Assembly (NCBI RefSeq): GCF_029962835.1
Contig: NC_080583.1
Location: forward strand, 72,525,158 to 72,589,157
DNA from: Magnolia sinica
Lineage: Eukaryota; Streptophyta; Magnoliopsida; Magnoliales; Magnoliaceae
Length of the DNA stretch: 64,000 bases
Reading direction: 5' to 3'
Part shown: in pieces, positions 21,525 to 60,000 of the stretch
Layout of the letters: the number at the start of each line of letters is the position of its first letter
Numbering within the stretch: the first letter of the stretch is position 1
The notes under the pieces: model-generated
What the model was told of the DNA's origin: nothing
The model's database searches: none
The model's input: the letters and a program-made list of their open reading frames with translations, nothing else
Translations under genes and position numbers: made by a program

Positions 21525-22035
21525 AACAATGGGCCCTAGGGAAAGTCATAATGCGGACATTTAACCACACTATACTTGCAATGTGGACGTCAAACCACCA
21601 TTGCTCCCAAGGCATAGCCCTGACGTAAACTTCATTACATAAATCATATTGGGATTGTACATTGCAATGGACCTTAGGCACGTCCCATTGGGCCTTAAAT
21701 ACGTCAAATGGGCCATATCATATGGGCCTTGTATTCATCAAGTGGGCCACATCACTGGGCCACACCAATGGGCCTTATGTACATTGCAATGGACTATAAA
21801 CCGTGGGCTTTAGAACGTATCAAATGGGCCTAATCTTATGGGCCTTATGTGTATCAAATGGGCCACACCAATGGGCCCCAAATGCACATCAAATGGGCCT
21901 TAACACATAGGCCCCAATATGTCTTAATGGGCCTTAAACCATGGGCCCTTAATACCTCAAATGGGCCTTGACCCATGGGCCCATAATACATCAAAGTGGG
22001 CCTCAATTATGGGCCATAAGTAATTGAAATGGGCC
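21525..22035. promoter_or_regulatory. Cluster of about 20 TGGGCC motifs in the LTR
   Basis: ATGGGCCTTA, ATGGGCCACACC and similar phrases recur every 15 to 40 bp. TGGGCC/T is known as the plant site II element bound by TCP transcription factors. The density here is far above chance. Whether it acts as a promoter element is inference. The counterpart in the other LTR is 30312..30838. Confidence 0.5.
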
Positions 22036-22057
22036 TCACCCAAATAACTAAAATATT

Positions 22058-22135
22058 TATATATATATATATATATATATATAATAGATTATATTATATA
22101 TATAATATATAAATATATCTAATATTATATATATA

Positions 22136-22181
<46 letters not shown>

Positions 22182-22218
22182 TCTATATATATATATATAA
22201 TATATATATATATATATA
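22058..22218. repeat. (TA)n-rich tract in the 3' LTR
   Basis: Nearly pure TA dinucleotide with short interruptions (atctaat, acatat), ending in acacatacacacacgc. The matching tract in the other LTR is 30859..31020 and differs in length, as expected for slippage. Confidence 0.95.
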
Positions 22219-24286
22219 CACATACACACACGCACCACACAGTGGGCCCACACACTCACACAGTGGGCCCACACACTTATAACAGTGGGCTACGTCCACC
22301 GTCCAGGCGGACGGTGGTGGTCAAACATATACATCCATGTGGGCTCCATGTGGGGCCCACCGTAATGTTGATATGCCATCCAACCCGTTGATAAGGCCAC
22401 ATGGGCCTAGGTGAAGGGTGAAAAGACATTTCACCCTGATCCAAAACTTCTGTGGACCCCAAGGGAATTTCAAAGGTAGAAGTTCCATCCCACTGTTTCC
22501 TTTGATGTGGGCCACCCGAGTCTTGGATCAAGCCGATTTTTGGGGTGGGCCCACGTCAGGTAGTGGCCCACCCGATGAACGGTTGAGATAGCATATAGAC
22601 CTCAAGGTGGGGCCCACGGTTCCAGCCGTGAGGGGCTGCTGGTACGTCCGTCCGCCCGGACGCCGCTGGCGCAGGCAGCGCTGCTGCCTTCTGTTTTTTT
22701 TTTTTTTGAAAAATCAGATTTTACAGGTGGGGTCCACATCTAGTGAATCCACACCGTCCATTGTTCTTCTATGGCTCACTACGAGCAAAACAAGTCCAAT
22801 ATTGGACATATTCCAGTGTACAACCCATCAGGGGAGGTTTCAATGGTGAAAACCACCTTTTGGTATGGTATGGCCCGCCTGAAGGTCTGATGGATCCCTT
22901 CTTTCAGGTCAACGGCTAAAAAGGGCTTGGGAAGGGAATGGATGGTGTGGATTTAATACATACATCAAGGTGGGGCCTACATGAATAGGCCACCCCAAAA
23001 CTTTGGAAAAAGTTGATATTTGTGTTTTTCCCATTTACACGTCCAGCGTCCAGGGACGACGCTGGACTGTCTGGACATTTGAGGTGGGCCTGATCAGGTG
23101 GGCCACCACTGATGAGTGGTGTGGGTAGTACACATATAAGGTGGGCCCCACTCAAATAAAATACTTACTACATGGTGGGGTCCATTCAAGCGGGCCATAC
23201 AACCTTATCATCATACAACAAGATAAAAATAAAATAAAATAAAATAAAACAAAAAGGGAGAGATATAGAGAGTGAGACCGTATGATGGAGGGACCCCGGC
23301 ACTATGGGCCCTCCCTTGCACTAAATCATACATCAAGTGGGTCCCATTACAAGTGGGTCCATGGAATTGAAATCCAACGGTGGAGATCCCTTCTCCACTA
23401 AAATGGATGGTCTAGATGACCCTAAGCATACAAGAAAATAAACATCATGATGGGGTCCATGGAGAATGGCCCCATCATGGAATGATCATGATGATCCAAG
23501 TGGGCCATCGGCCACGTTTTAGGGTCCACAGTGAGATCCAAACCATTGATCGGTTGGCCTCACTTGGCCCATCTTAAAATATCAAAATCTATCCTATCAA
23601 AACACCCACCGCTAGATCTTCTTGCTCCCTTGGCTTCCTTAGTTCCTTGAGCTCCTCTTTGATGGTGGAAGATGAGAAATGGATGGTTGAGATGAGAGAT
23701 GAAGGGGTGGGAAAGGTGGACCTCACAAATAAAATTTTCTCACCATGGGAAGACCATACGTATGGGACTTGCTATGGGAGAGTTTGAATGAGAGAGAGAC
23801 TTGTAAGGGAGAGAGAGAGAGAGAAGGAGATGGGTGATGGAGTGATGGGGGATGGTTTGGGTTGAAAATGGTAAAAAGAGGTATGGTTGTTGTTGAAATT
23901 TGGAAAAGTGGAGTGGTGAGATGGAAAGAATGGTGGACTTTAGTAAAAGGTGGTGATGGGTTGATGTACTTGAGGTATGGGGTGCTTTGATGGTTGATTG
24001 ATGGGACTAATTGTAGAGATTCCCTCGAAATCCAACGCGCGGTGTTTCTTCGAATAAACGCCGATCGGCATCTTCTTGCCCTGGATATCGGTTTGGTGCG
24101 CAAGTCACGCGTTGGAACCGCGGCGACGCTGCGCTATGATATAACCTTCGACCGAGCCGAGCGTCGGTCGCGGGACTGGCTTAGGATCATGCGCAAATAC
24201 CGAATACGGTGCGAAGGTTGCCGGAATTTGACCGGAAGGACCGCGGAAGCTAACGGAACAGTACGGATTAGGACACGGGTCTTACA

Positions 24287-29081: not shown

Positions 29082-30967
29082 CGTCACGCCCCAAACTCGA
29101 GCGGGCTCACAAAATTCCCGATCGCCGAATCCGGCGACGACCTCGTAGAACCCCATTCTCGGCTCCCGCCACCCATTCGGTTCCGATCCGGGATGCTACA
29201 AGGAGGATTTTCAACATCGTTTGATTCGTAATAAGCATAACCAAAGGCATAACCCACAAACAACAACCAAAAACTCCATCACATTTCCACTATAATCAAA
29301 AACTTTACAAGTACAATGAGCATAAGGGAAATACAATGAAGATAGACCAAAACTCCAAAAGAAGATCACCACGCGTCCAAGCCTCCGCGCTGCTGCGAGC
29401 ACACGACGGTCGTGCATAAGCTTATGAAAGCTTAGAGGGTGGTGAAAGTGTATGCTCAAGGTGATAATGTAGTAATATCGGAGTAATGCGGAACATGCCG
29501 ATGAATGCTAAGAACCCCATTAGCCGTACGAGGCCATGCGGTGCAAAGAATGATGTCGGCCATACCAAGGCCATGCAATGCAAAATGCAAGTCAAGCATA
29601 CAAATCCTCATCTAAGTCCACATGTCAATACGGCTCAAATCGGGAATATCACTGGGGTCTAGTACACTCCAAGCCGATTGCCGCCCCATCGCGCGCAATA
29701 AGGTGAGTGGAAAAGACCTCACTATCCGCGCCAATATCGGGCTCGGCTCGTCAATAGCGGACCCATTCCTCGAGCCGGTCAAACTCGCCTAGCATTGCCC
29801 CTACTCTCAGGCTGGTAAGGCCGCACCCCCTTCCAACCGACCACGACACGGTGGAAAGCGCAACCGTCGGTAATCGGCACTCGGCGATCATGCACCCACT
29901 CGGTCTAGACGTTGGAGCAACCTCCCGGTACCATAAGGGTTTAGGGACTTTCACCCGGGATATCTATCGCACCCCATGTAGAACAAGATTTCCGGTATCC
30001 AATCCCGCCAACCACGATGCTCGTGGAGGCTATGGCCCGATGTCGCTAGGGCGTACGGTGACAATATCACACAATGCAAATGCATGAATCACACTACCGG
30101 TCATACAAGCAATCTGCGCGTATCGTGCGCTCATGTAGGGCAACACCCCTGTACGGAGCCCCTAGACAGTCCGCCGAAGGCATATGCTATGATCAGTCAT
30201 TTCTCATATAAAGCATACGTATGATTCATATGATAATGAATAATGAAATTAAACATTCTATATAGGATGTATGATGTACATAACGAAGGTGGGCCTAGAC
30301 AGCCTACACATAACATGCACGAGCCTAACAATGGGCCTTAGGGAATGTCATAATGCGGACATTTAACCACACTATACTTGCAATGTGGACGTCAAACCAC
30401 CATTGCTCCCAAGGCATAGTCCTGACGTAAACATCATTACATAAATCATGCTGGGATCGTACATTGCAATGGACCTTAGGCACGTCCCATTGGGCCTTAA
30501 ATACGTCAAATGGGCCATATCATATGGGCCTTGTATTCATCAAGTGGGCCACATCACTGGGCCGCACCAATGGGCCTTATGTGCATTGCAATGGACTATA
30601 AACTGTGGGCTTTAGAACGTATCAAATGGGCCTAATCTTATGGGCCTTATGTGTATCAAATGGGCCACACCAATGGGCCCCAAATGCACATCAAATGGGC
30701 CTTAACACATAGGCCCCAATATGTCTTAATGGGCCTTAAACCATGGGCCCTTAATACCTCAAATGGGCCTTGACCCATGGGCCCATAATACATCAAAGTG
30801 GGCCTCAATTATGGGCCATAAGTAATTGAAATGGGCCTCACCTAAATAAGTACAATATTTATATATATATATATATATATATAATATAGTATATAATATA
30901 CATATAATATTACATGAACTATAATATTATATATATCTATATATATATATATATATATATACATATA

Positions 30968-31001
<34 letters not shown>

Positions 31002-32937
31002 TAGATCTATATATATATATAGACAGACACACACGCATACACAATGGGCCCACACACTCACAGTGGGCCCACACACTTATAACAGTGGGCTACGTCCACC
31101 GTCCAGGCGGACGGTGGTGGTCAAACATATACATCCATGTGGGCTCCATGTGGGGCCCACTGTAATGTCGATATGCCATCCAACCGGTTGATGAGGCCAC
31201 ACGGGCCTAGGTGAAGGGTGAAAAGAAATTTCACCCTGATCCAAAACTTCTGTGGACCCCAAGGGAATTTCAAAGGTAGAAGTTCCATCCCACTGTTTCC
31301 TTTGATGTGGGCCACCCGAGTCTTGGATCAAGCCGATTTTTGGGGTGGGCCCACGTCAGGTAGTGGCCCACCCGATGAACGGTTGAGATAGCATATAGAC
31401 ATCAAGGTGGGGCCCACGGTTACAGCCGTGAGGGGCTGCTGGTACGCCCGGACGCCCGGACGCCGCTGGCGCAGGCAGCGCTGCTGCCTTCTGACACACA
31501 GCAGCAACGGCTGCTGTGTTGATTTTTTTCCTTTTTTTTTTTTTGAAAAATCACAGATTTTACAGGTGGGGTCCACATCTAGTGAATCCACACCGTCCAG
31601 TGTTCTTCTATGGCTCACTACGAGCAAAACAAGTCCAATATTGGACATATTCCAGTGTACAACCCATCAGGGGAGGTTTCAATGGTGAAAACCACCTTTT
31701 GGTATGGTATGGCCCGCCTGAAGGTCTGATGGATCCCTTCTTTCAGGTCAACGGCTAAAAAGGGCTTGGGAAGGGAATGGATGGTGTGGATTTAATACAT
31801 ACATCAAGGTGGGGCCTACATGAATAGGCCACCCCAAAACTTTGGAAAAAAAGTTGATATTTGTGTTTTTCCCATTTACACGTCCAGCGTCCAGGGACGA
31901 CGCTGGACTGTCTGGACATTTGAGGTGGGCCTGATCAGGTGGGCCACCACTGATGAGTGGTGTGGGTAGTACACATATAAGGTGGGCCCCACTCAAATAA
32001 AATACTTACTACATGGTGGGGTCCATTCAAGCGGGCCATACAACCTTATCATCATACAACAAGATAAAAATAAAATAAAATAAAATAAAACAAAAAGGGA
32101 GAGATATAGAGAGTGAGACCGTATGATGGAGGGACCCCGCACTATGGGCCCTCCCTTGCACTAAATCATACATGAAGTGGGTCCCATTACAAGTGGGTCC
32201 ATGGAATTGAAATCCAACGGTGGAGATCCCTTCTCCACTAAAATAAATGGTCTAGATGACCCTAAACATGGAAGGAAATAAACATCATGATGGGGTCCAT
32301 GGAGAATGGCCCCATCATGGAATGATCATGATGATCCAAGTGGGCCATCGGCCACATCTTAGGGTCCAAAGTGAGATCCAAACCATTAATCGGTTGGCCT
32401 CACTTGGTCCATCTTAAAAATATGAAAATCTACCCTATTAAGACACCCACCACTTGATCTTCTTGCTCCCTAGGCTTCCTTGGTTCCTTGAGCTCCTCTT
32501 TGATGGTGGAAGATGAGAAATGGATGGTTGAGATGAGAGATGAAGGGGTGGGAAAGGTGGACCTCACAAATAAAATTTTCTCACCATGGGAAGACCATAC
32601 GTATGGGACTTGCTATGGGAGAGTTTGAATGAGAGAGAGACTTGTAAGGGAGAGAGAGAGAGAGAAGGAGATGGGTGATGGAGTGATGGGGGATGGTTTG
32701 GGTTGAAAATGGTAAAAAGAGGTATGGTTGTTGTTGAAATTTGAAAAGAGGAGTGGTGAGGTGGAAAGAATGGTGGACTTTAGTAAAAGGTGGTGATGGG
32801 TTGATGTACTTGAGGTATGGGGTGCTTTGATGGTTGATTGATGGGACTAATTGTAGAGATTCCCTCGAAATCCAACGCGGTGTTTCTTCGGAATAAACGC
32901 CGATCGGCATCTTCTTGCCCTGGATATCGGTTTGGTG
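29082..32937 (-). repeat. 5' LTR of the chromovirus, truncated
   Basis: Collinear with the 3' LTR from its GC-rich end (CGTCACGCCCC here, the terminal T changed to C) to tatcggtttggtg, then stops. The counterpart of 24100..24286, about 187 bp including the outer terminus, is absent and 166 bp of flanking DNA follows instead. It carries a 30 to 40-bp stretch around 31493..31530 (cagcagcaacggctgctg) not present in the other LTR, and many small indels. Confidence 0.85.
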
Positions 32938-33103
32938 CTCAGAATACCTCCCAATCCAGTTTACACTCATATATATAGCCTTGTAAAGAATCCCAAACGA
33001 AATCGGAAACAAATTTTGCAAATCCGATGGATCCGCAAAATTCTGCGCAAAACTTTCGATGTCATCAAAACTTATCCTTTGATGGCATTGAAGTCGGGTC
33101 AAT
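32938..33103. repeat. 166-bp direct duplication, right copy
   Basis: Same sequence as 20100..20265, joined to the truncated 5' LTR at ttggtg/ctcagaat. On its far side it continues gacatcgaattaac, which would be the natural continuation of the pre-insertion site. Confidence 0.9.
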
Positions 33104-42076: not shown

Positions 42077-45000
42077 ATGGATCAGGAGACGCATTCCGAA
42101 GTTACTTCGCAACGCAGGAGGGGTTCTCCTGCCGCAGATCCGTTGCGACAATCATCGAGAGCTACTCAGGCTCAGAGCAACGATGCGTTCGCCATCCCCT
42201 TGATTTTCATCAGCATCTTTTTTCTCATGATCCTGGTAATCAATCTCATTCATCGCTTGTATCAGTTTCTCGATCTTCAAATCGACGGTCTCGATTGCAT
42301 CGATCGAATGCAATGGAGGTCCGGTTGTTGTGGACATGGATGGAGTAAGTACTCTTTTCATGCACTTGCCTAGCACGTGGCAAAGAGGCACACGTGTGTG
42401 AGGCGGGAGCCGTTTATCGGGCTGTCCCCACCGTGTAGATGCAAAAACCAGGCTGTTCTGATAATCGGGTGGATCGTGGCCCACCTGATGATCGGATGTT
42501 TTCAAGATCGGCACCGCTCATTTTGCAGTTTGACTGTGTAGATGCAGCATCTGAAAAGCCGATTGATCTGATCATCAAGGGGCCCACATGATCAATGGTC
42601 CGCACTGTGCAATTGTTGATCAGATCTGTTTATACATGGTGAGGATCGCCTTACGAGGAGCTGGTAGCTACCATCGGACCCATGCCTGCGTTGTTGCTGA
42701 GTTGCAGTTGTTCCTGCTCACTTAGCTTTCACCATTGCCAAATTGGTCGGTTTTGATTATCGATCTGGACTGTCCATTTGGTCTATCTCAATCTTCATGG
42801 ACCACCATTGCAAAACCACATCAATCGGATGGTTTTGTAATTCCGGTTGATGGGTTAAAAAGGAATGGCTTGGATTTCTCTGTCTGGGGTATTTTTTCGA
42901 TCAAACAATCCAGACCATCTGTTTTGTAGCTTGGAAAATGGATAGTCATAAAATGAAGCGGTTGATTGACGGGTTTTGATAGGATATGCCTGCTTACCAT
43001 ATCACAGCTACCTTACTGGGGCAACTTGATAGCTGTTGGCATTTGAATTTAATGATATCATGAAATTTCATTATATTTGGTGCAAGGAAATGCAGCCTAT
43101 AAAGCATTTGAATTGCAGCAATAGCATTGCTATGTGATTGTCTTGATTCTACTATTGGGGAATCTGATCTATTATGAACTAGTAAGCTGAGCATGTGAAA
43201 TAATTTTGAAGTAGGGTAGCTTGTAAGCTGTAATTAGGGTGGCAACTAGGCTGGCTGGAGTCGGAGTGTTGAGGTCTATTGTGTTTGAACTGGGTTTTTG
43301 GTCCAATGACCAATTTGGCTTTACTTGCCCTTGCATTTGCCCTAAGGTCCGACAAGTGGGCCAGGCATAGCTTGACTTGCTTTACATAGGTGGGTTAAGC
43401 ATTTGGCCACTAGACTGCTTGGTTCAAGCCAGATTTGTTAGCTCATGGGCTTGGCTGTCCCAGGCTTGGACTCAGGTCGATATGTCATTGAGCAGGCTTG
43501 AATATGCTTCAGTCTGGTCTAGCTTGAGGCCTACTTGCTACACTACTTACACTACTTGCTACCCTACTTAAGAAAATTGCAGACATAAAACTTGGAGAGT
43601 AAAACAGCGAGAGACATAACATGTTTAAATATTTATATATTTTAGAGACAAAATGTCAAGCACAACTGAATTGCTATGTATGTTGGACACAGACCAGTGT
43701 GTCAGATAGATATCTGGGGTGGTGGACACAATGGCTTTTAGAAATTAGATTTGCCGATATGTCATTGAAAATACTTAGATATTCAATTTTATTAATATTA
43801 TTGAATTACATTGGTGGAATAGGATTTTTAAAGCCAACACTAAATTGCTGGTCTATTTTATGTCATTATTCTAGAGTCCAGCTAGTGTCATCTACTATCT
43901 TGAAAAGTTGTAGAGAGATTTTCTTTGGAGGGGAAGGGAAGCAGAAAAAAATGACACTTGAGGAGGTGGTGAGAAGTTTGTAAGCCTCAGGCTTTTGGTG
44001 GAGTTGGTATCAAAGATTCGAAATCTATGTATGAATCAAGTGCTTCTTGAAAAATGGTTATGGAGATTTGGGATTGAAGAAGATAACTTATGAAAACAAA
44101 TTATAGCATGCAAGTATGGGGAATAAGAAGGAAGTCAGTCCACATTTGTCTTCTAGATACTAGACCTTCTTTAAGAATCTAATGGATGATGAGATTTAGA
44201 ACCTTGCCACGTTGTTGGATCGCATTCGTGGTTTAATTGCTTGTTTTCTTGAGCATGATAAATAGTGGTGGAAGTTCAAAAGCTCCAAAAATTTCTCAAT
44301 GAGCCATTCTTTTCCTTGAAAGCAGAGTGTGTGGGGGTGCCTGCATCACCTCAACTAATATATGGAATTACCTTCATCCTCCATTGTTACTTCTTTTAGA
44401 TGGTTAGTGGCAAATAACAAATTCATAAACATTGACCATTTGCACAAGAGGAATATGATGATTGCAAATGCATGCATTATGAGATGCGAATTTAATGCAG
44501 AGGCATTTTCACACTGGGCTCGAGTGGGGTCGCTTGTTGGATGCAGGGGCACACTCGGGGTGGGTGACCCATGCGATTTGGGGCCCACGGGGGAGGTCTC
44601 GTGTTCGAGACTCCTTGCCAGGGGTGATTAATGCGCATTTCACACCGAACTCGAGTGGGGTAGCTTGTGGGATGTGGGGACACACTCGAGGTGGGCGGCT
44701 CATGTGATTTGGGGGCCCACGAAGGGAATTCGGTCGAGGTCCTAACCCATGAGATGTGGGGCCTGGGCTATGAGATAAAGGGATTAATTCGCTATACTCT
44801 AACAGTTCAAGCTTTTAGAGCAAGTGGTTAATTGTCCTGCATCAAATTGGTATCAAAGCGGAAGGTCTCATGTTCGAGACTCCTCACTGGGGGTGATTAA
44901 TGCAGGGGCATTTTCACACTGGGCTCGAGTGGGGTCGCCTGTTGGATGTAGGGGCACACTCGGGGTGGGTGACCCATGCGATTTGGGGCCCACGGGGGAG

Positions 45001-48000
45001 GTCTCGTGTTTGAGACTCCTTACCAATGGTGATTAATGCGCATTTCACACCGGGCTCGAGTGGGGTAGCCCGTGGGATGCGGGGAAACACTCGGGGTGGG
45101 GGACCCATATGATTTGAGACCCACGAATGGGGTTCGGCCGAGGTCCTAACCCATGAGATGTGGGGTCTGGGTTATGAGATAAAGGGATTAATTCGCCATA
45201 CTCTAACAGTTCGAGCTTTTAGAGCAAGTTGTTAATTGTCCTGCATCAGAATTGTGTGTAATAGGGTGTTGTATGCATCCCGTCTAGTGATGACATGCCC
45301 CCCAATGACAAAGCGCCATGTTTTTGTGTTAAATGTGGGATTCACATTAAAAAGTAACACTTGCATGAAATGACGATTTTGCCTTTTCCATTGTGGGTCC
45401 TATGCGTAACACACTCACCTAATGCTTTGTCATTGGGGGCACGCCATGTGCCTTAAGGGCGCAGAATTAATAAACCATCTATCTCAGTTCATTGTGCGGT
45501 TGCTTCAGTAGTATGGACTAAGGTTCTGGTTGGCAGCCCCATTCACATGTGAAGTGGGTTATGCTAGGTGATTTACCCTGCTGCAGCCTGCATGCAATCT
45601 ATATCCTACATTATGTACCTTTAAGGTTCAGAATCAATTAACCATCTATCTGTTTAGTTCATTCTGAGGTTGCTTCAGTAACGTGGACTAAGGTTCTGGT
45701 CCGTCCTATTCAATGTGAAGTGGGTTATGCTAGGTGATGCAGACATTGTGGCATTGGCCCATGTGACTAGACATGATCACGTAACGGGCGGGCTCCACTG
45801 CATTGTATACACTAGCTGGTGTTGACATTAGAATTTTGCCTAAGGTCAATCTGTGGTAACCATCATTGGTTAGTGCAGGGCGTTTGACGCTCATCTACAA
45901 GCTAGTGTGGGACTAGGTTACAAACTAACTAAGGTCAGTGCAAGACCATTTATGGCATTCCACGCGAATGGTTAGGGTAGGGCCAGTGCAGGTCCATTAT
46001 TCACTCACTCTGCTCACTATTTAAGGACAACACAAAACGCCTTTGGCACATTCTACGACAATGGTTAAGGCTTAACGTGAGTCCTCTGGCATCCACTCTG
46101 CCCACATTATCCAAGGGTAGCATGGAATGGTAGTGGATAGTTTCCAAGGCACCAAAAGTGTAGTTTGCGCTCACTGTTTAAGGACAGCGTGAAACCTATG
46201 TAGGCCGAACCACACCAACTGTTTGTGATCAGTGTGGTACCAATTTCCTTGACAGGAGTTCACTCCATGCCAACGGCCAAGGCTAGTGTTGGATTACATT
46301 TTGCACCTAGTGTGTAATAGCCCATGCCTACCCCGTAAGATATTGTCCGCTTTGGGCTCACGCCCGCACGGTTTTGTTCGCAGGGTTCTCCCCCAAAAGG
46401 CCTCTTACATTATAGGGTGGATCTCCACATATAACCATCACAACTTCGGACAACGCTTCCGATGTGGGACACCGTTCCACCCCACTGCATACACAGTAGC
46501 CTGCCACCACTGGTAGCTAGCCCAGGTCCTTAGACCCCACCCATACAGCGTCCGCCCACATGTGCACTAGCATTGTGTCACATTCTGGGAATGTCACTCT
46601 CGAGAAGTCGCTCTCAGCAACAGTACCTCTCCTCTCTGCTTGTATAATATCTCGCACGCTGCTACTCGTAGCTTCTCCAGCTATCCACTCTCATCACTCC
46701 CAAGGCAAACGTGTCCCAACAGCTGTTTCCAAAGGAATGGATCTACAGAAAGAGTCCCCCCTTACAGCTCTTCTCCTTCGTCCGCATCGTCTGCAACTTC
46801 GAGATGATAGAATTTTCTCTATTGGAGTCCTCTTTCAGATCCGTCACAGTGGATTTCTCCCCTCTATAAATACTAGTGTAATGTGTGTTGTAGAATAAGA
46901 GAGAAGTAAGAAATAGAAAGAAGTACTAGAAAAAACTAAGTGAGAAAATAGTGTTATAATCCCAGCTTATGTGTTTATATATTTGCTCTCATTTCATGTT
47001 TTTAACCCTGTCTAAATCATAATTTTATGTTCCGTGCTACAGTAACTTGCTACAGTACTAATGTTACAGTAACATCGCTATAGTAACGATGTTACAGTAA
47101 CACTGCTACAGTACTAGGCGCATAAGCACACACCATGGGTGGAGTAGGAAGGAGTGGAGGTAGTGGTGAGACAGATTGAGAACACCGAAGATGGGACAAG
47201 GCTTTTTGGTAGTAGGGCATAAGAGGAGGTTTGGGTGGTTGTGAGGGCTTCGGAGATGGAGGCTTTGGAGGTGAAGGTTTTGGTGGTGAAGGCTTTGGTG
47301 GTGGAGGTGAGGGTTTGCACACGGGAGGAGGTGCAGTGACTGGCTTCTTTTTGGGGTAAAGGACATAGAAGTCAAATTTGCTAGACGGTTCACCAAGAAG
47401 ACCAACTTCAGGGTCTCCAGCTTCATATCTGCGTTTGAGCTGGGCCTGAAAAGATTTGGATTTGCGAGGCTTCTTATCCTCATAGCAATCATCACACTCA
47501 CAAGCATCCCAACCAATATGGAGACCATTACGTTGTCGCCAGTCAGTATAAAGGCGTCCATAGGGATCAGGACCAGTAGGAGCTGGTTCAGTAACATAGA
47601 TGCCTTCAATCCATTCGCCAGGAGGAGGATTGACTGGAGTAAAGCAATTGAGCTCAGGAAGAGGAGTGGAGAAAACCGGCGTAGCCTGGGAGCTGGTTTC
47701 AAACTTGGTTTCCACTGTCTTGTCCTTGCGTCGAACAAAGATAGCGGAGTCATTGGAGATCACCTGAGAGGCGTCCATCTGCTTCGCATAATTGGTGATC
47801 CATATAGCAGGAAGAATTTCTTTCAACTGGTCTGGAGTCAGCTGGCGTGGAACAAATGTACACTTGGGAACATCATTCTGGTCCACACAAATCAGCAGAG
47901 CATCATGCCGAGAGGCAAGACCTGGGAGAAGCAAATCAATGGAATGATTCTGGATGCGGAAGGCGACCTGGTAGTGCAACGTGGCCGCTATGGCACCATC

Positions 48001-51000
48001 TTGGAGGTCAGCACCAGAGAGCTGAACCTTGGCTTGGAGAGCCGAGAAAAGATACGCATCACTGAATGGGAGATTAAAGTTGGGATACAGAGTGACAAAC
48101 ACTGTACCCTTGTTCAGTGTGGTCTGGATTGTGCCGATTACCGCATGTTGGTACTGTCGAAACCGGGTGTCCAGAAGAGCAAGCTTACAGGCCGTAGGAA
48201 GGCCTTTTCTGCCACAGACTGTGTGTTACTGTAGCACGGTACTGTAGCAGTGTTACTGTAGCATCGTTACTGTAACGATGTTACTGTAGCATTAGTACTG
48301 TAGCAAGTTACTATAGCACGAAACATAAAATTACGATTTAGACAGGGTTAAGAACATGAAATGACAGCAAATATATAAACACATAATTAACAAACCTAAG
48401 CAGGCTAAAATAGCTGCAATGATCTCTGGCGGATACATGGAAGAGAAGGAAGTTGATGGGGCTTTAAATAAACAGTACGAGGGAATGGAGTGGTGAAGAT
48501 AATATCAGTAATAAGTAAAAATCTAGAAAATCTATAAGGCAGTAAACACTTAAGACGAAGACGGAATTTAAAGCAAACACGTTTGCTTAACATAAGCTGA
48601 AACAGAAATAGAATTACAAAACAAATAAGGAAGAGAAGTCGTTATCAGAAAAACATCACTTTCATAAGTCTCTTTTAAACTATTTACAAACTCATAAGCT
48701 GGGATTATAACACTATTTTCTCACATAGTTTTTTCTAGTACTTCTTTCTATTTCTTACTTCTCTCTTATTCTACAATACACATTACACTGGTATTTATAG
48801 AGGGGAGAAATCCACTATGACGGATCTGAAAGAGGACTCCAATAGAGAAAATTCTATCGTCTCGAAGTTGCAGACGACGCAGACGAAGGAGAAGAGCTGC
48901 AAGGGGGGACTCTTTCTATAGATCCATTCCTTTGGAAACAGCTGTTGGGACACGTTTGCCTTGGGAGTGATGAGAGTGGATAGCTGGAGAAGCTAGGAGT
49001 AGTAGCGTGTGAGATATTATACAAGCAGAGAGGAGAGGTACTGTTGCTGAGAGCGACTTCTCGAGAGTGACATGCTGAAGAAATGGGTTTTGCAGAGATG
49101 CTTCTGCAAAGGTGCAGAGGTGCTTTAAAGTTGCAGACTTTGATGGCGATGGGTATAGCTTCAGTCGGAGCCTGAGTCACTAGTTGAAGCAGTGTGATAA
49201 ACAGAGTGGGGAGACTCATCATCGTTGGAAGAGGGTGTTGGAGCCATTAAGAGTTCGAGATTCCTTTCCATGTAGGATGTGAAATGGTCCAAGCACAAAT
49301 CACTGTTGGCTGTAGACATTGGTGTGAGCCAAATGGAACTTGGAATGTTGGCATAGAGAACATAGAATCGTTTAGACATCTTGCTGTAATGTCTATCCAA
49401 ATCAGCTTTCTCAAAAGAGCAGACTTTCATCTGTATAAATTCTTCTCGTGCTATTCGTGCATAGGAAGTAGAATTACCAACGAACTCAAGATAGAGGAAG
49501 CCTATAAAAGCTTCAAGACTGTTTTCTTGCAGTAGCTGAAGTTGGCGATATTCACCAAGCATGTTCCACCATTCACGTAATGTACCACTGAAACGGGCAA
49601 TGACTTTTTCACAGGTATGGCGTTCTGTAGCACCTGGAGTTTGGACGTCAGCTTTCATCCATGCATAGATGTCCATAAGACGTTGTTGCCATTCATGAGG
49701 TGGAATGTCATCAAGGGTGAATAACTTCTTATGATCATTCTCAGAAACAACAACACGAGGAGGTTGCGGCGGCGGTGGAGGCCGATCATCTTCATCAACA
49801 TCACTTGCTGCTTCATCAACCTGAGGGTCAGGATGAGGAGCTTGAGGGTGCGGAGTAGGCATGGCACCGTGAGGTTGGTACATCAGTTGGTCAGGAACTT
49901 CTGAATCAACATTGTCAGAGAGATCAGAAGCTTCTGAAGGAACCAAAGCACTGGTTCGAAGAAATGATGCAATTGGATTCAATGGCGCTGGAGGCAGGTA
50001 TTCATCAGAAGGAATGGACAAGGCCATTAGATCAAAAGTGAAGGGATGATCTGGCTCAAGAGGTTTCTTGCCTTTAGAAGAGGAGGGAACGGACGGATGT
50101 GAGCTTATAGGAGCTGGGTGAGAAGGTGGAGGAGTAGGTCGAAAAGATTGTGAGACGGAGGGTTGTGGTAGAGGCGGAGGGGAGTTATAGAAAGTGGGTG
50201 GAGTGGCCCATGGAATAGTAGGTGGTGTAGAGGGTATCCAAGGTAACGGAGGAGGAGCAGGTAATGGCAGTATTTTAGGGTGAGGGAATAATGGATTATC
50301 AGGATAAATGGAAGGAGCTGGCCTGGGCGGATTTTTGATGTCATGCAGTTGAGCTTTGAGGGACTTTCTTTCCATCTCTTTTTGCAAGAGAAGGTTAGAA
50401 TCACGAACCGTAGTAGCAATGAAGTACAGCTCCTTTTCAATAACAGCGATTCGAGCTTCAAGAAGAGGAATCACAGGGCTTTGCTTTTGCACAGTAGCAT
50501 TGAGCTGTTGCTGTTGGTATAGCAGTTGCTGCAAAGCACGGTTTTGTTGAGCGGCATTTTCAGCTTGCCAATTAAGGGCTGCTTCAGCAGCAGAGACGCG
50601 TTTGGGAGTACCATCAGATTGAAGACCAGGAGGGTCTTTGATTTTCCAAACATAACGAGTACGTTCAGCAGGGTACTCAAAGTCGTCTGTGGCTGGAAAA
50701 TGCGGGTCATCAGTAGGCTCATAAGCACACGCCATGGGTGGAGTAGGAAGGAGAGGAGGTAATGGTGAGACAGATTGAGAACACCGAAGATGGGACAAGG
50801 CTTTTTGGTAGTAGGGCATAAGAGGAGGTTTGGGTGGTTGTGAGGGCTTCGGAGATGGAGGCTTTGGAGGTGAAGGTTTTGGTGGTGAAGGCTTTGGTGG
50901 TGGAGGTGAGGGTTTGCACACGGGAGGAGGTGCAGTGACTGGCTTCTTTTTGGGGTAAAGGACATAGAAGTCAAATTTGCCAGACGGTTCACCAAGAAGA

Positions 51001-54000
51001 CCAACTTCAGGGTCTCCAGCTTCATATCTGCGTTTGAGCTGGGCCTGAAAAGATTTGGATTTGCGAGGCTTCTTATCCTCACAGCAATCATCACACTCAT
51101 AAGCATCCCAACCAATATGGAGACCATTACGTCGTCGCCAGTCAGTATAAAGGCGTCCATTGGGATCAGGACCAGTAGGAGCCGGTTCAGTAACATAGAT
51201 GCCTTCAATCCATTCGCCAGGAGGAGGATTGACTAGAGTAAAGCAATTGAGCTCAGGAAGAGGAGTGGAGAAAACCGGCGTAGCCTGGGAGCTGGTTTCA
51301 AACTTGGTTTCCACTGTCTTGTCCTTGCGACGAACAAAGATAGCGGAGTCATTGGAGATCACTTGAGAGGCGTCCATCTGCTTCTCATAATTGGTGATCC
51401 ATATTGCAGGAAGAATTTCTTTCAACTAGTCTGGAGTCAGCTGGCGTGGAACAAATGTACACTTGGGAACATCATTCTGATCCACATAAATCAGCAGAGC
51501 ATCATGCTGAGAGGCAAGACCTGGGAGAGGCAAATCAATGGAATGATTCTGGATGCGGAAGGTGACCTGGTAGTGCAACGTGGCCGCTATGGCACCATCT
51601 TGGAGGTCAGCACCAGAGAGCTGAACCTAGGCTTGGAGAGCCGAGAAAAGATACGCATCACTGAATGGGAGATTAAAGTTGGGATACAGAGTGACAAACA
51701 CTATACCCTTGTTCAGTGTGGTCTGGACTGTGCCGATTACCGCATGTTGGTACTGTCGAAACCGGGTGTCCAGAAGAGCAAGCTTACAGGCTGTAGGAAG
51801 GCCTTTTCTGCCATGGAAAGTTATGGCAAGGCGGACTGCACCAAAGTGCAGATGCGTGTATCCTTGGGACCGCCAGTCAGGGAGCTTCTCGCTGGGCAGT
51901 TGGAGTTGGATGAACTCCTCAAGTTGATTGGCACGGATGGGAGCCTGATCAAACTTGGAGGACAAAGCATATTCTTTGATGGGAACGTGCTGCTTGCGCA
52001 CAAGTTGCTGGAACTTGGAAGAAAGAGAACCACGATTTTTCTGAAAGAACTGGTAAGGATTGGAGACAGGAAGATGGGTAGCAGGGACATTTTCATCAGC
52101 ATACTCGACTTCATACAAAAACTCATATTTACTACCACTAAAAGAGGTAAGAGGAAGAGGAAGGGACTTAGTAGAAGAAGAAGAAGACAACGACGGAGAA
52201 CGAGCCGTAGACATGCTAAAACAAACGGCAGGATGTATGGCATGGTTAGGAAAGGGCACCAGAGGGAACTCAACTATCTTCAGAGTGCAAGTCATAGTTT
52301 GATACAATTCAAATTCCTTTTATCAAGAACATGTTGACTACAAAGGGGTGACCTTAACGCCTACCACAAGCTCAACGGTCGAAACTCACCAACTGGATCT
52401 TGATAGCCAGAAGTAGGAATTCTATATCCATCTTGTTCAACAGATATTATCAAACCAAGTGTTCTGATACAAAAGATCGCACGAGGCGCAACTGTAGAGC
52501 ATACTAATCATGGCGACTATGTATCTATCTACTATTAAAAGGAGATAGACTATGCCGACACTGAAGAAGGCGGAGATACCTGAAGGTAGTCCTATCCATC
52601 ACATAACATACACCCCGACCAACAAAGTTAGAAAGCCATGGCTCTGATACCAATAAACCAACCAGGGTGATACATAGCTAAACCCTAAACCCTAAATAAT
52701 GTTAAAACCAGTGTATCAAATAGCGTTCGTAGCGTAGCGGTAGCGTACGCTACGTAGCGTAGCGTAGCGATTTCGCTACGTAGCGTCAGAAATAGCTTAC
52801 GCTACGGGTATGTAGCGTGTAGCACAGGTAGCGTACGCTACCTGTTTTGTTTTTTTTTTTTTGTTTTTCCAGTGCAGGAAACAGTGGTGAACTCACACCA
52901 CAAGCAAACTTAAGTTAAAAAACCTAATTCTAAACGGCTTCCACCCCCAAACCGCAGCAGCCGACGCAGCTGCTCTCCCCACCCTTGCATTTGGAGACTC
53001 AAAATCTTCTCACAGAGCAAATCCGACGCTGCCGACGCTGATTCTCTCCCCACCCTTCAATGTTGTGGTCGAAAGTCAGCTGCCAGGCGCAAACCGACGC
53101 CGTTGACGTTGCTCCTTCCCACTTTTCAATCGTGAGTTGGAAAAACAACTTCCAAAGGCAAACCGATCGCTGTGGAGCTTCAATATTTACAGTTTTTAGC
53201 GATTCAATCTCATCTTGAGACAAAAATAGGTGCGCTCCTTCCTTTTTTTCTTCTTCTCCTCTTCCTTCTTCTCCTTCTTCCTCTTCTTCTTCTTCTTCTC
53301 GGACTGCTGCGGTTACGGTCGCAGCTGCGGATTCTTCTCTCTCTCTCTCTCTCTCTCTTCTTTCCCTCTTTTCTTTCGGTTTCCCCCTCTTCTTTTTCAT
53401 TTCCGGAATCGAAAATGGAATAGACGGACAGCCACACACTTATTATTATTATTATTTTTGTGTTCTGCGATGCACGTTGAACAGTGCACTTGCACTATTT
53501 TGTTACACGGTTCCTGTAATGTTTATTTTCCATCTAACCTGTTAATTAGGTTACATTGACATGGATGAAGGGAAAACACACATGTCAGCTTGATCTAATA
53601 CTTTTGTAGCCCCTAATAAATTTTTAATGGTGGATGTTTAATTATTGTTGTTTCTTATGGTGCGGTCCACCCAAGCTTTGGATTTGCCTCATTTTCGGGC
53701 TCATGCCCTAAAATTATTTGGCAAAATGGATGGACGGTGTGGATATAACACATTTATCACAGTGGGGCCCAAAAAACTGACACTTGTGTGCTACACTTCA
53801 CAATCCGAGTCCCGCCTAATTCGGTCCCTTAAAAAATTGTACACGAGACATGTATTAACTTAAAAATAATAAGACCTTATCCATCAACTTCTTACTATTT
53901 AATATTTATCATATATATATATATATTAAAATTAAAAAATAGAAGTATTGTGTAGCTTACGCTACACGCTACGCTATTTCGCTACACGCTACGGAGGGCT

Positions 54001-57000
54001 AAACGCTACGCAACACGCTACCGCTATTTAAAACACTGGTTAAAACCAACCAGGGCTAGCTACCAGTGGTTGGTAGGCTACTGTGTATGCAGTGGGGTGG
54101 AACGGTGTCCCACATCGGAAGCGCTGTCCGAAGTTGTGATGGTTATATGTGGAGATCCACCCTATAATGTAAGAGGCCTCTTGGGGGAGAACCCTGAGAA
54201 CAAAATCATGCGGGCATGAGCCCAAAGCAGACATTATCTTACGGGGTAGGTGTGGGCTGTTATAAATGGTATCAGAGCCGAGGACAGTTCTGCCCTCGGT
54301 GGAGGATAGTGTGAAGCCCCATCACTGTTGCACACATGGGCGGACGCTGATGTGGGCGGGGCCTAAGGGCCTGGGCGAGCTACCAGTAGTTGGCAGGCTA
54401 CTATGTACACAGTGAGGGCAGAATGTTGTCCCACATCGGAAGCGCTGTCCGAAGTTGTAATAGTTATATGTGGAGATTCACCCTATAATGTAAGAGGCCT
54501 TTTGGGGGAGAACCCTGAGAACAAAACCGTGCGGGCATGAGCCCAAAACGGACAATATCTTACTGGGTAGGCGTGGGTTGTTACAAATGGTATCAAAGCC
54601 AAGGACGGCTCTGCCCTCGGTGGGGGATAATGTGACACAATACTGGTGCACATGTGGGCGGACGCTGTGTGGGCGGGGTCTAATGACCTGGGCTAGCTAC
54701 CAGTGGTTGGCAGGCTACTGTGTATGCAGTGGAGTGGAACGGTGTCCCACATCGGAAGCGCTGTCCAAAGTTGTGATGGTTATATGTGGAGATTCACCCT
54801 ATAATGTAAGAGGCCTTTTAGGGGAGAACCCTGAGAACAAAACCATGTGGGCGTGAGCCCAAAGCGGACAATATCTTACGGGGTAGGAGTGGGCTGTTAC
54901 AAATGGTATCAGAGTCGAGGACGGCTCTGTCCCTCGGTGGGGGATAGTGTGAAGCCCTGTCATTGTTGCACACGTGGGCGGGTGCATGTGGGCGGATGCT
55001 GATGTGGGCAGGGCCTAAGGGCCTGGGCGAGCTACCAGTAGTTGGCAGGCTACTGTGTACACAATGAGGGCGGAATGTTGTCCCACATCGGAAGCGCTGT
55101 CTGAAGTTGTGATGGTTATTTGTGGAGATTCACCCTATAATGTAAGAGGCCTTTTGGGGGAGAACCCTGAGAATAAAACCGTGCGGGCGTGAGCCCAAAG
55201 CGGACAATATCTTACGGGGTAGGCATGGGTTGTTACAAATGGTATCAAAGCCGAGGACAGCTTTGCCCTCGGTGGGGGATAATGTGACACAATACTGGTG
55301 CACATGTGGGCGGACGCTGTGTGGGCGGGGTCTAAGGACCTGGACTAGCTACCAGTGGTTAGTAGGATACTGTGTATGCAGTGGGGTGGAATGGTGTCTC
55401 ACATTAGAAGCGCTGTCCGAAGTTGTGATGGTTATATGTGGAGATTCACCCTATAATATAAGAGGCCTTTTGGGGGAGAACCCTGAGAACAAAACCGTGT
55501 GGGCGTGAGCCCAAAGCAGACAATATCTTATGGGGTAGGCGTGGGCTATTATAGTGCGTGCTAACGGAAAGTACTTCAAGTCGTCCAATGGCAGCTTGAC
55601 ACGTGTTAATAATTGCCTCTTATGGGGTAGGCGTGGGCTATTACAATGCGTGCTAACGGAAAGTACTTCAAGTCGTCCAATGGCAGCTTGACACGTGTTA
55701 ATAATTGCCTAACAAACTTTTAAACATGACATAACGGTGTAACCTCCTCATGGGTTGGAAATAACCATCTCCCATCCTTATAAATACCCTTTTGACTTTT
55801 GAGTCTTCATTTCGGCACTTCATGCTATTCAGCCCTCGAGATTGCTTAAGAGTTGTAGATCCTCAAGGCTTTCTCTCTTCTTTTTCTTCGTGCCAAGGCT
55901 TGGGACAAGGTGAGGATGAGAGTCTAAGGACTCGTCTCCTATGAAACGTGGCTTTGCACCAACCTTTGGACCCCCTAGTAGTGGCTTAGCGCCAACAGTC
56001 TGAGAACTAGTTGTCTGGCTCTGCTGGAATGTCTAAGGTGCCTGAGCAGTGGCCCGATGCTGACCACTCAAGGCTCTGGAGGTGGTTCCACGGTGCTCCA
56101 AGCAGTGGCTCCGTGCTGACTATTTGGATTGTTCCAAAAGTGGTCCCGTGCTGACCATCAAGGCAATTTGTGCTGACCTTTGGGTTTCTTTAGCAGAATG
56201 GCCTCGTGCCATTTCTATCTGAGGTCTTCTGAGCGCTTCAGGGAATGTAGAATGTTGTCGGAACTTCTAAATTTCCTGGAGCTGTACATGACATGAATGC
56301 TAAGGCTATTGAGTCATCAAAGCATTGGAATACCTAAGCCTGATTGATGATTTAGACACCCTGAAGACGAACAACCATAGATTAGGAACTATATGCATCA
56401 TTTGCATCTGACTACTCTGTACAAGGTGTTTTGTAACGGTAACGGTGGCTGTAACAGCCGCCACCGTTAGCTTTATGATAGGGGCTGTTACGCCGGCTAT
56501 TGAGTCATCAAAGCATTGGAATACCTAAGCCTGATTGATGATTTAGACACCCTGAAGACGAACAACCATAGATTAGGAACTATATGCATCATTTGCATCT
56601 GACTACTCTGTACAAGGTGTTTTGTAACGATAACGGTGGCTGTAACAGCCGCCACCGTTAGCTTTATGATAGGGGCTGTTACGCCCCCCGTAATGGCCAT
56701 TACGGTCTATTTTTTTATTGAAAAAAAAAAATCCTGAAAAACCTGTATTTGCCCTGTAATATTGATTAAAAAGTATGGAAAACTTGTATCTACCCCATAA
56801 TAGGCCTTTAAAAGGGATATAACATGCCGTTAACTGAAATTATGGGTCATTTTTTTCCGTAACAGCTGTTACGACCCCGTAAAGTGTAACGGTTGCCACC
56901 GTTACATTTACGTAACGACCATTACGGCCCCGTAACGGCCTTTACGGCCTACCGTGACTCTGTACCATGTGACAAACTAGTTCTCTTTGGTTTTTTACCT

Positions 57001-60000
57001 TTTAATAAAGGGTTTTTTTTTCCCACGGGGAATGTAATTAAGAGTTGTGCCAAACCACAACCTAGAATGTATTTTTGTTTCTGAGATCAATAAAAGCCTC
57101 TCAGCATGGCATATTTGAGTGCATATCCTTGTGGAGTTAATATCAATCTGATATCAATTCCTATTGATCATTAAACATTTGTGTTGAATGGGTGGACATT
57201 TTATTTTTCTCATTTTCTTAGAATTCTTCTCTTATCAGGTCATTTCATTAGTTGTTACAGTCATATTCAGTCATTACTTCTTCAGACAGCTAACAGGGTG
57301 GATCTCAAATTCATATCATTGTGGGCATCATGCTACTAATTGTCTACATGAGTTACCGGGGGAGTTGACCATACCCGTACCCGTACCCGTTCGAGTTGAC
57401 CTGATATGGACAAATTTGGGCAATTTGACCAAGTTTTCCCCTCCTGTATAGGCAGGGTGTACCATATTGGTTGGACCGGAACCAGTGAGTATTGGGTGAC
57501 GCCACTGATTTCGGCTGATACTTCAAACCTTGATCCATCTAGTGGGCCATATTGTGGCAACACTTACTGGTTTCGGATGATACACTTAAAACCTTGATCC
57601 ATCTAGTGGGCCATATTGTGGATGGTCCAAGGTACAATAAGCTACACCAGGACATGGCTAACCATGGTTACATGGGTAGTGGGTTGCTCTGCTACGGGAA
57701 CAGGTACTCAGTATGCTACTTCCTCCAACGTGTGTTGGTTCGCTAGGAGTAGGTTAACGTGGGTCAGTCAACATATACACCAGGTACCAAGTTTACACAA
57801 TATATGGAAAGCTATGAATGGTGTAGTTTTATGTATGGGTTGATATTGTAATTTACATATGAAATGCTGAATATTATTGTTATAGGTCCCGCATGCGTAA
57901 TATTTTATATATCTAGAGAGTTGCATAAATCAAAGTATTAATATCTATTATCTATGCTCCAAATATAGGTTGACATTACAAGTGAATCTACACTAGGAGT
58001 ATAGAACCACAATTTTGGATCATTAAAATGATCCCGATAGCAAATGACCCATAATTCGGATTGTAGGACTTGGAACATAAAACATATGGGGGTTGGTGAT
58101 TTAGGTAGCAATTAGCATTGTTCCTAACTGTCTAACCGGTGGACTTTGCACAAATGAATGTGTGCAATTTGCAAAATTTTCATTAAAAGTCAGCTGGATC
58201 TTCATGCCACTGTTATTTTCATATTGTGGTCATCCTAGGGGCATTTCTGGTTGCACTGGCTCTACCAATAGAATAGCACTTAAAAATATAAAAGCACTTT
58301 AATCAACATTAAATTCTATAATGCAAACAGTGATGTATGGATTTCTGGTGTTTCCAAAGAAGTAAGAAGATTAGAAATCAAAGCAAAATTTGAAGAAGTA
58401 GCAAAAAACAATAAATTGATAAAAAGAAAAATAGTATTTTAATCTACATTAAAAATATATGGAAAACAGTAAAATTGTTAAAAAGAAAAATAGTATTGTA
58501 ATCTAAATTAAAAATATATCAATCAATTATTCTAATCCATGGATCTTTGAGTATTTATTAACAAAAAAGAGAGTTCCAAAAACAGTTAACATCAATTAAT
58601 CCTAATGTGCACTCTGCATGGATGATGTGATCCATTTGTATTGGGCGTTCTTTAAAATTAAACAAGAAAAGCTGATATAGCATAAAAGTGAATTGAATAA
58701 ATATTAAATTACATTGAACATCTGTATCCACTGATAGATGTTTGACGTACATATATCCAAAGATACAGAGTGAAAGCAAGTAAATCTAAGAAAAATAACT
58801 GAACAGATCTCAGTTGATGATATCCCAAGCTCAGCTGTCAGTTTTCAGTCAATCCATTGACTGTGATGTAGATAGGAGTTTTTAGCTTGATTCATTACAA
58901 CCCTTAGTTTCTTGCTTGAAATAAGGGAGAGTGATTTGTCATTCTCCATAATCGTATTTTATCCATGATCATATTTCACAAAAAGCCCAAATCACTCAGA
59001 AGACAACTCTATTTATACATGAGATCCTCAGTCCTCACAACACTTACCCACTCAGTACAAATGAGACATCCTTTAAGTCACTTAAGAAAGGTACATTTGG
59101 CTGAGTCATGAATCCCATGGGTGTATCATGTCAGTTCCCAAACTGGGATGATAGGGCAGAGGTTTTAAAACTTGGGAATATGAAATTGTAAAGGTTGGAA
59201 TTTCAGCGCTTAAGTATGAACAAATATAAGTGCGATCTTTGTGAACCATATATTTTTTCCTCTTCTTGTAACTCTTTAAATGGGCCATATTTTGCGCTTG
59301 TTTTCTCTAAACCAAAAAATTGTAAAATGTGCTATGTTAAAATTTTCAGATAGTATTTTCATCGGCAGTGGATACAGCAAGCAGCACTTTTTCCATTTTA
59401 CATCAAGTTCCTGAAGGCCATGTTGGTGTGTATTGGAGGGGTGGTGCCCTTCTTGAAGGAATTACCAATCCAGGTAAGGCTATGATGCCTTTTCAACTTC
59501 ACTAATAGTTTTATTTTGCATTGCAGGATCCAAGATCACAGATCACTTAAAATTTATCTGGGTTTTCTAGGTTTTCATTTGAAGATGCCGTTGATAACCC
59601 AATTTGAGCCTATTCAAGTGACCCTTCAAACGGATCAGGTAAATGTTGCTATGGGGGCCCCCCCCCCCCCCCCCCCCCCAATATTTAATACATATTGGGG
59701 ATATGGGGTAAAAAACTCAAAATATTTTTCCATGATTAACGGACACTTTTGCCTTTTTTTCCTGCAATCAGGTGAAGGATATCCCATGCGGTACAAAAGG
59801 TGGTGTTATGATTAGCTTTGATAAGATAGAGGTAAACCATCATAAGATTGTTCTTCATTTGTTAATACAAGTTGTCAAGCTTCAAACTTTAGCAGGGTTG
59901 GCTATTTTTATCATATAAAAATGCAGTCGTTCTAAGTTGCATATATTTTGATTGAAATGTTCACAACAGGTTGTTAATCGTCTTCGTAAAGAGTATGTGT

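What the first reader, a model, noticed from the sequence alone, without database searches (positions are those of the whole stretch)
46591..49073. Convergent viral promoters around a viral movement-protein fragment inside a host intron
Two inverted copies of a caulimovirid intergenic region (525 and 835 bp), each with a TATA box facing inward, flank a 1.1-kb movement-protein fragment. Transcription from both would produce complementary RNAs over the fragment. The inverted arms would also fold in any read-through host intron transcript. This is a layout that could generate small RNAs against related viruses. The geometry is read directly; function is inference.
Basis: partly seen in the sequence, partly recalled or inferred. 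Interest (0 to 1): 0.9.

Follow-up and report, generated by a model that had tools for sequence, protein, structure and literature searches.

The report
Inverted viral promoters in magnolia intron
A scrambled piece of an ancient plant virus sits in an intron of a magnolia gene, with two copies of the virus's promoter facing each other across a viral gene fragment; it could fold into double-stranded RNA, but it looks like an accidental rearrangement of a known kind.

Summary
The geometry is real. Two inverted copies of a caulimovirid intergenic region (46588-47114 and 48215-49076; 23 mismatches in 527 aligned positions) carry inward-facing TATA boxes and flank a movement-protein fragment (47115-48214). 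The block is the left end of a larger rearranged insertion (46588 to about 52707) in the 17.1-kb first intron of an ERLIN gene; host almost certainly Magnolia sinica. A genome search scored 22 copies of the outer arm: eight close inverted pairs (seven distinct loci), five copies at 7.8-kb spacing, one single. The other seven pairs face outward; this one alone is convergent and alone has a scored movement-protein match between its arms. The TATA stretch is the longest invariant run across 17 intergenic-region copies. Host read-through RNA is predicted to fold back strongly. Small-RNA production is plausible, as reported for rearranged tomato caulimovirids, but untested: no RNA data. Against specialised function: the layout is unique among the scored pairs, the arms are no better kept than the spacer (p = 0.027 for more divergence), and inverted caulimovirid pairs are common in this genome. 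New member of a known kind.

The parts
46588..47114 (+). Intergenic-region copy 1 (promoter faces right, inward); lacks 311 bp present in copy 2
46865..46872 (+). TATA box of copy 1 (TATAAATA)
   Evidence: CTATAAATA present in 17 of 17 intergenic-region copies examined
47115..48214 (-). Movement-protein fragment (internal part of MP plus proline-rich extension), spacer of the inverted repeat
48215..49076 (-). Intergenic-region copy 2 (promoter faces left, inward)
48792..48799 (-). TATA box of copy 2
48387..48697 (-). 311-bp segment of copy 2 missing from copy 1 (unpaired bulge in a fold-back)
49092..49363 (-). Block that precedes the intergenic region in at least one arm of each of L009-L016: end of the viral polyprotein frame (stop at 49161, ...SDSGSD) plus about 70 nt
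49161..51425 (-). 754-aa open frame: end of MP, coat-like part, joined in frame to the polyprotein C-terminus (protease-RT-RNase H part absent)
50714..51813 (-). Second copy of the MP region, 97.7% identical, in direct orientation to the fragment
52641..52652 (-). tRNA-Met primer-binding site TGGTATCAGAGC (viral position +1)
   Evidence: PMC13308828 gives a tRNA-Met site starting with the same 12 letters
52653..52707 (-). Last 55 nt of the intergenic region before the primer-binding site; recognisable viral sequence stops near here at a TAGCG-repeat element
42077..42235 (+). Host ERLIN exon 1
59350..59473 (+). Host ERLIN exon 2; intron 1 (42236-59349) contains the insertion

Best explanation
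A rearranged endogenous caulimovirid. A viral piece running from just before the primer-binding site through MP and a truncated coat/polyprotein to the intergenic region (52707 to 48215, minus strand) was joined to a second MP fragment and an inverted intergenic region by end joining or template switching, and lodged in intron 1 of a Magnolia ERLIN gene. Shown: sequence, orientation, conserved TATA, host intron, predicted folding. Inferred: ERLIN pre-mRNA read-through, or residual firing of either viral promoter, gives fold-back RNA with arms from the viral promoter/leader and an MP loop; if transcribed, DCL enzymes would cut the arms into small RNAs, as reported for rearranged inverted-repeat caulimovirids in tomato. 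The convergent layout is most likely accidental and mostly silent, not a selected antiviral cassette.
For: Viral identity: MP domain, primer-binding site, and in sister loci the order RT-RNase H-C-terminus-intergenic region (L013) and C-terminus-intergenic region-primer site-leader-MP (L014, L015). Core promoter: the longest invariant run across 17 copies is CCTCTATAAATA, 12 nt against a next longest of 6; 322 of 20,000 column shuffles reach 12. Host gene. Folding: host-sense RNA has uninterrupted helices up to 91 bp; RNAs from the minus and plus promoters have 232 and 264 long-range pairs, without a shuffled control of their own. Accidental origin: 7 of 8 close inverted pairs of this region are divergent, with differing inner ends; MP copies of relatives also form close pairs, 6 divergent, 1 convergent, 3 direct. 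Precedent for small RNAs: PMC10377300 section 16, PMC6256188 passages.
Against: No transcript or small-RNA data, so even the RNA step is unproven; silence is inferred, not shown. The arms remain 95.6% alike and the fragment has no stop over 377 codons, which a reader could take as signs of maintenance; but dN/dS between the two MP copies is 0.59 (NG86) or 0.90 (YN00) and only the other copy has stops (2 codons). On the plus strand AATAAA at 48467 and ATTAAA at 48073 could end RNA before the far arm is complete, weakening the fold-back for host-sense and copy-1 RNA. Only 22 and 42 genome matches were scored, which are lower bounds. No relative's genome was on hand to look for an empty or shared site.
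Confidence: 0.7

Rival explanations
1. A working small-RNA locus: fold-back or convergent transcripts are diced into 21-24-nt RNAs that silence related caulimovirids in trans, and the locus is kept for that (the first reader's idea; like the tomato transcriptionally competent siRNA areas).
For: Geometry and folding; conserved TATA; inverted-repeat caulimovirid loci in tomato and soybean are reported small-RNA sources; 592 of 1,079 22-mers of the fragment are exactly shared with the neighbouring MP copy; five further MP copies in the genome are 88% identical.
Against: No RNA data; unique layout among eight scored inverted pairs; arms not better kept than the spacer (p = 0.027 for the opposite); 35 of 42 scored MP matches are only 68-79% identical, too far for many exact small-RNA matches.
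Confidence: 0.18
2. A source of 24-nt RNAs that methylate the viral promoter in cis and at sister copies (transcriptional silencing), because the paired arms are promoter and leader rather than coding sequence. This can hold together with the best explanation.
For: The stems are intergenic region; review passages describe 24-nt RNAs and methylation at several caulimovirid copies.
Against: No methylation or small-RNA data; CpG depletion of the arms (observed/expected 0.67 and 0.69) is no stronger than the window's 0.68.
Confidence: 0.25
3. The arms are LTRs of a retrotransposon, not a viral intergenic region (they start TGTCAC).
For: TG start at both outer ends.
Against: No primer site follows either copy in the window; in L014 and L015 the same sequence lies between the polyprotein end and the primer site plus leader and MP; copies in two arrays are spaced 7.8 kb in direct orientation, as expected of tandem viral genomes.
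Confidence: 0.03
4. Assembly artefact.
For: Inverted repeats are prone to mis-assembly.
Against: 23 of 527 arm positions differ and there is a 311-bp indel; similar inverted pairs with their own divergence lie at six other distinct loci.
Confidence: 0.03

Closest known systems
Transcriptionally competent siRNA areas of rearranged tomato caulimovirids (Valli et al. 2023; known to me here only through the review PMC10377300, section 16)
   Same: Rearranged endogenous caulimovirid in inverted-repeat conformation whose transcript would fold back.
   Different: Here small RNAs are untested; the arms are the promoter-bearing intergenic region facing inward; host is a magnoliid.
Head-to-head endogenous cotton pararetroviral elements (PMC10458927, passages)
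   Same: Two caulimovirid copies on opposite strands at one locus.
   Different: There about 15 kb with two full-size copies, 98.98% alike; here fragments with a 1.1-kb spacer.
Soybean endogenous CMV RNA1 inverted repeat (described in PMC6256188, passages)
   Same: Viral inverted repeat with a spacer; reported to yield small RNAs only from the repeated part.
   Different: RNA virus, near-complete 3.4-kb repeat, spacer of plant origin, just downstream of a Copia promoter rather than driven by its own arms.
Florendovirus insertions in introns and bipartite component B (PMC4241990, section 7 and passages)
   Same: Intronic location; MP-coat piece with intergenic region but no RT.
   Different: Genus not tested (no RT in the window); no protease domain was found in the 754-aa frame; nothing shows that this deletion form was a replicating component.

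Membership tests
Endogenous caulimovirid | 30K movement protein | tested here: met
   PF01107, E 9.6e-08 and 1.3e-08 for the two copies
Endogenous caulimovirid | tRNA-Met primer-binding site between intergenic region and leader/MP | tested here: met
   52641-52652 minus strand, preceded by intergenic-region end; same in L014 and L015
Endogenous caulimovirid | RT-RNase H polyprotein in the same repeat family | tested here: met
   Not in the window's insertion; present beside the same intergenic region in sister locus L013: RVT_1 E 2.2e-12 and 1.2e-13, RNase H E 3.8e-23
Florendovirus or Petuvirus (genus) | RT-RNase H phylogeny | not tested
   No RT in the window's insertion; no reference RT set was used
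Transcriptionally competent siRNA area (tomato type) | Rearranged caulimovirid in inverted-repeat conformation | tested here: met
Transcriptionally competent siRNA area (tomato type) | High density of 22-nt, DCL2-dependent small RNAs | not testable with these tools
   No small-RNA data
Transcriptionally competent siRNA area (tomato type) | Silencing of transcripts with complementary sequence in trans | not testable with these tools
   Needs expression experiments
Bipartite florendovirus component B | MP, CP and AP present, RT missing, C-terminal extension, IGR over 90% like component A | tested here: inconclusive
   MP and a coat-like stretch (DUF7746, 19.7 bits, below its cut-off of 27) joined to the polyprotein C-terminus; no AP found; one insertion only

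The most novel reading that the evidence does not exclude
Magnolia keeps a set of caulimovirid intergenic-region inverted repeats (seven distinct loci from several viral lineages) as a heritable, promoter-directed small-RNA memory; the ERLIN-intron locus is its only self-driven member, making RNA from its own inward promoters as well as from the host gene.
Probability: 0.08. Interest if true: 0.78.

Novelty: new member of a known kind. Interest (0 to 1): 0.4.

Why it matters
If transcribed, the locus is a clean natural test of whether inverted viral promoters in an intron make small RNAs, and whether these come from a hairpin (arms) or from convergent transcripts (spacer too); six distinct outward-facing sister loci in the same genome serve as built-in controls. 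It would extend the tomato and soybean cases to a magnoliid. As it stands it mainly shows that inverted caulimovirid insertions are frequent in this genome.

Tried and rejected
Viral contig collection: the MP fragment, an 11-sequence MP alignment and a 22-nt primer-site pattern gave no relative. Rfam at gathering scores: 0 matches in the window. LTR reading rejected (see rivals). Methylation scars by CpG depletion: uninformative. A protein search with residues 480-754 of the 754-aa frame found only P0052. A junction-spanning genome probe did not complete; instead I checked whether any scored MP match lies between intergenic arms elsewhere: none in the 7 other pairs. An earlier arm count of mine (26 of 543, p = 0.009) counted 16 positions twice in copy 1, once against a wrong partner; the mended count is 23 of 527, p = 0.027, and I lowered the weight of that argument and my confidence slightly. 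Literature: searches listed no paper on convergent caulimovirid promoters around a viral gene that I recognised, but the listings were capped (for example 15 of 688 and 12 of 428); Valli 2023 and Jia 2020 are not held, so I cannot say that they lack it. The coat-protein and as-1 labels and the promoter function of the region rest partly on recalled knowledge.
Full report
WHAT IS THERE. Two inverted copies of one sequence lie at 46588-47114 and 48215-49076. Copy 2 has 311 bp that copy 1 lacks (48387-48697), with a 5-bp microhomology (TTATG) at the break, and 24 bp more at its inner end; the other 527 positions differ at 23 (14 of 379 outer, 9 of 148 inner). Between them, 47115-48214 encodes on the minus strand an internal part of a viral movement protein (PF01107, E 9.6e-08), a 97.7% direct copy of 50714-51813.

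THE LARGER INSERTION. The block is the left end of a longer viral stretch on the minus strand. From the right: 55 nt of intergenic-region end (52707-52653), the tRNA-Met primer site 52652-52641, leader, MP, and a 754-aa frame (49161-51425) that carries a coat-like stretch (DUF7746, 19.7 bits, below its cut-off of 27) and ends in ...SDSGSD. Frames with the same ending lie before the intergenic region in six of the eight fetched loci (L009, L010, L011, L013, L015, L016; L014 ends differently, and no such frame of 95 aa or more was listed in L012), and L013 shows RT and RNase H upstream. So in the window the protease-RT-RNase H part is missing and the coat-like part is joined in frame to the polyprotein end. 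Two MP codons of this copy are stops against none in the fragment.

HOST. A plus-strand ERLIN (SPFH/Band 7) gene has exon 1 at 42077-42235 and exon 2 at 59350-59473 with GT-AG borders and a 17,114-bp intron. The best match, P0099 of Magnolia sinica, is 99% identical over the whole 311-aa query and joins the same exons. Contig lengths 85,446,948 (C11, the window's contig) and 77,824,990 (C15) equal those listed for P0099 and P0052 of M. sinica, so the window is almost certainly from that assembly.

PROMOTERS. TATAAATA faces inward in both copies (46865 plus, 48799 minus). CTATAAATA is present in 17 of 17 intergenic-region copies examined (two each from L009-L015 and the window, one from L016; L012 and L013 are near-duplicates; the five copies in the 7.8-kb-spaced arrays were not fetched). 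In their alignment 180 of 391 well-covered columns are invariant, and the longest invariant run is CCTCTATAAATA, 12 nt, the next being 6; 322 of 20,000 column shuffles reach 12. A core promoter kept in the viral phase is the natural reading; activity today is untested. A TGACG half-site lies 22 nt upstream of the TATA in both window copies but in only some of the others.

FOLDING. Host-sense RNA 46500-49150 has MFE -1408 kcal/mol with 579 pairs spanning more than 900 nt; three controls with arm 1 shuffled gave -771 to -777 and 96-145 such pairs. RNAs starting about 30 nt after each TATA and running through the far arm have 232 (minus) and 264 (plus) long-range pairs; no shuffled control was run for these two. 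Thus each promoter alone could give a hairpin RNA, whose stems are leader and promoter and whose loop is the MP fragment. A hairpin source predicts small RNAs on the arms; only annealed convergent transcripts (or an RNA-dependent RNA polymerase) would cover the MP fragment. In a four-hexamer scan the minus strand has only AATAAG at 48770, but the plus strand has ATTAAA at 48073, AATAAA at 48467 and three AATAAG, so plus-strand RNA might end before the far arm is complete.

THE REST OF THE GENOME. The outer arm has 22 scored matches in the 1.84-Gb assembly (lower bound). Sixteen form eight inverted pairs within 5 kb; C108 and C3 look like one duplicated locus (one arm 100%, the other 96.2% identical), leaving seven. 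Five lie at 7.7-7.8-kb spacing in direct orientation near contig ends (C2 end, C17 start); one is single. Seven of eight pairs are divergent, promoters outward; the window's is the only convergent one and the only one with a scored MP match between the arms. The MP fragment has 42 scored matches: 7 at 88% or more (two of them the window's), 35 at 68-79%. MP neighbours within 5 kb give 6 divergent, 1 convergent and 3 direct pairs, one direct pair being the window's own. Within L010, L011, L014 and L015 the two arms are each other's closest relatives; the window's copy 2 is closer to an arm of L009 (97.0%) than to copy 1 (95.1% in that alignment). Inner ends differ between loci, so the pairs look like separate events. 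In L009 and L010 all four outer ends stop, within one base, just before the primer site, which is absent there: the genome's position +1.

MECHANISM AND SELECTION. The simplest account is end joining or template switching of viral DNA pieces, in line with what the review PMC10377300 (section 12) describes for caulimovirid capture. The hairpin shows no sign of being kept: arms 23/527 against MP 25/1100 differences, Fisher p = 0.027, modest evidence that an origin of the two arms from different viral variants would also explain. dN/dS between the MP copies is 0.59 (NG86) or 0.90 (YN00), stops excluded.

KNOWN KINDS. Inverted-repeat caulimovirid loci that make 22-nt small RNAs in tomato, soybean inverted repeats, and intronic insertions are described in PMC10377300 (sections 12 and 16 and passages) and PMC4241990 (section 7 and passages); PMC6256188 (passages) lays out both routes, fold-back and sense-antisense annealing; PMC10458927 (passages) reports head-to-head copies in cotton. 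PMC9124383, PMC12904150, PMC13308828 and PMC9794742 were seen as passages. Valli 2023 itself is not held. The case is a new member of a known kind with an unusual inward topology, in a magnoliid host.

Noticed in passing
G000 whole genome: Close inverted pairs of caulimovirid pieces are mostly divergent: 7 of 8 intergenic-region pairs (6 of 7 distinct loci) and 6 of 7 inverted MP pairs among the scored matches. No explanation tested.
   Followed up: partly
L009:2084 and 4827; L010:2025 and 5463: All four outer arm ends of these two inverted pairs stop within one base of the position just before the tRNA-Met primer site, as if linear viral DNA ending at genome position +1 was inserted.
   Followed up: partly
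G000:C2:140186983-140208897 and C17:3151-11237: Intergenic-region copies at 7.7-7.8-kb spacing in direct orientation near the end of one contig and the start of another, looking like tandem arrays at assembly breaks; not read.
   Followed up: no
window 49161-51425: Coat-like region joined in frame to the polyprotein C-terminus, with the protease-RT-RNase H part missing; resembles a component-B-like deletion form.
   Followed up: partly
window 47036-47113 and 48227-48304: GCTACAGTA repeats (8 exact matches in the window, all here; 0.22 expected) near the inner ends of both intergenic copies, close to both joins with the MP fragment.
   Followed up: partly
window 54049-55551 and 46313-46584: A roughly 320-bp repeat unit, five copies right of the insertion and one inverted copy ending 4 bp from its left edge; one unit has a tRNA-Met site, so it may be a small LTR-type element.
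   Followed up: partly
window about 52700-54045: An element rich in TAGCG repeats with inverted ends and TTAAAA on both sides (by eye), apparently inserted in the viral intergenic-region end.
   Followed up: no
window 20267-24102 and 29083-32941: 3.9-kb direct repeats, 93.8% alike, around gypsy-type protease/RT and Tf2-1-like SH3 fragments at 24.6-27.6 kb: probably a Ty3-type element with long LTRs.
   Followed up: no
window 56304-56685: Tandem duplication of 191 bp, 99% identical.
   Followed up: no
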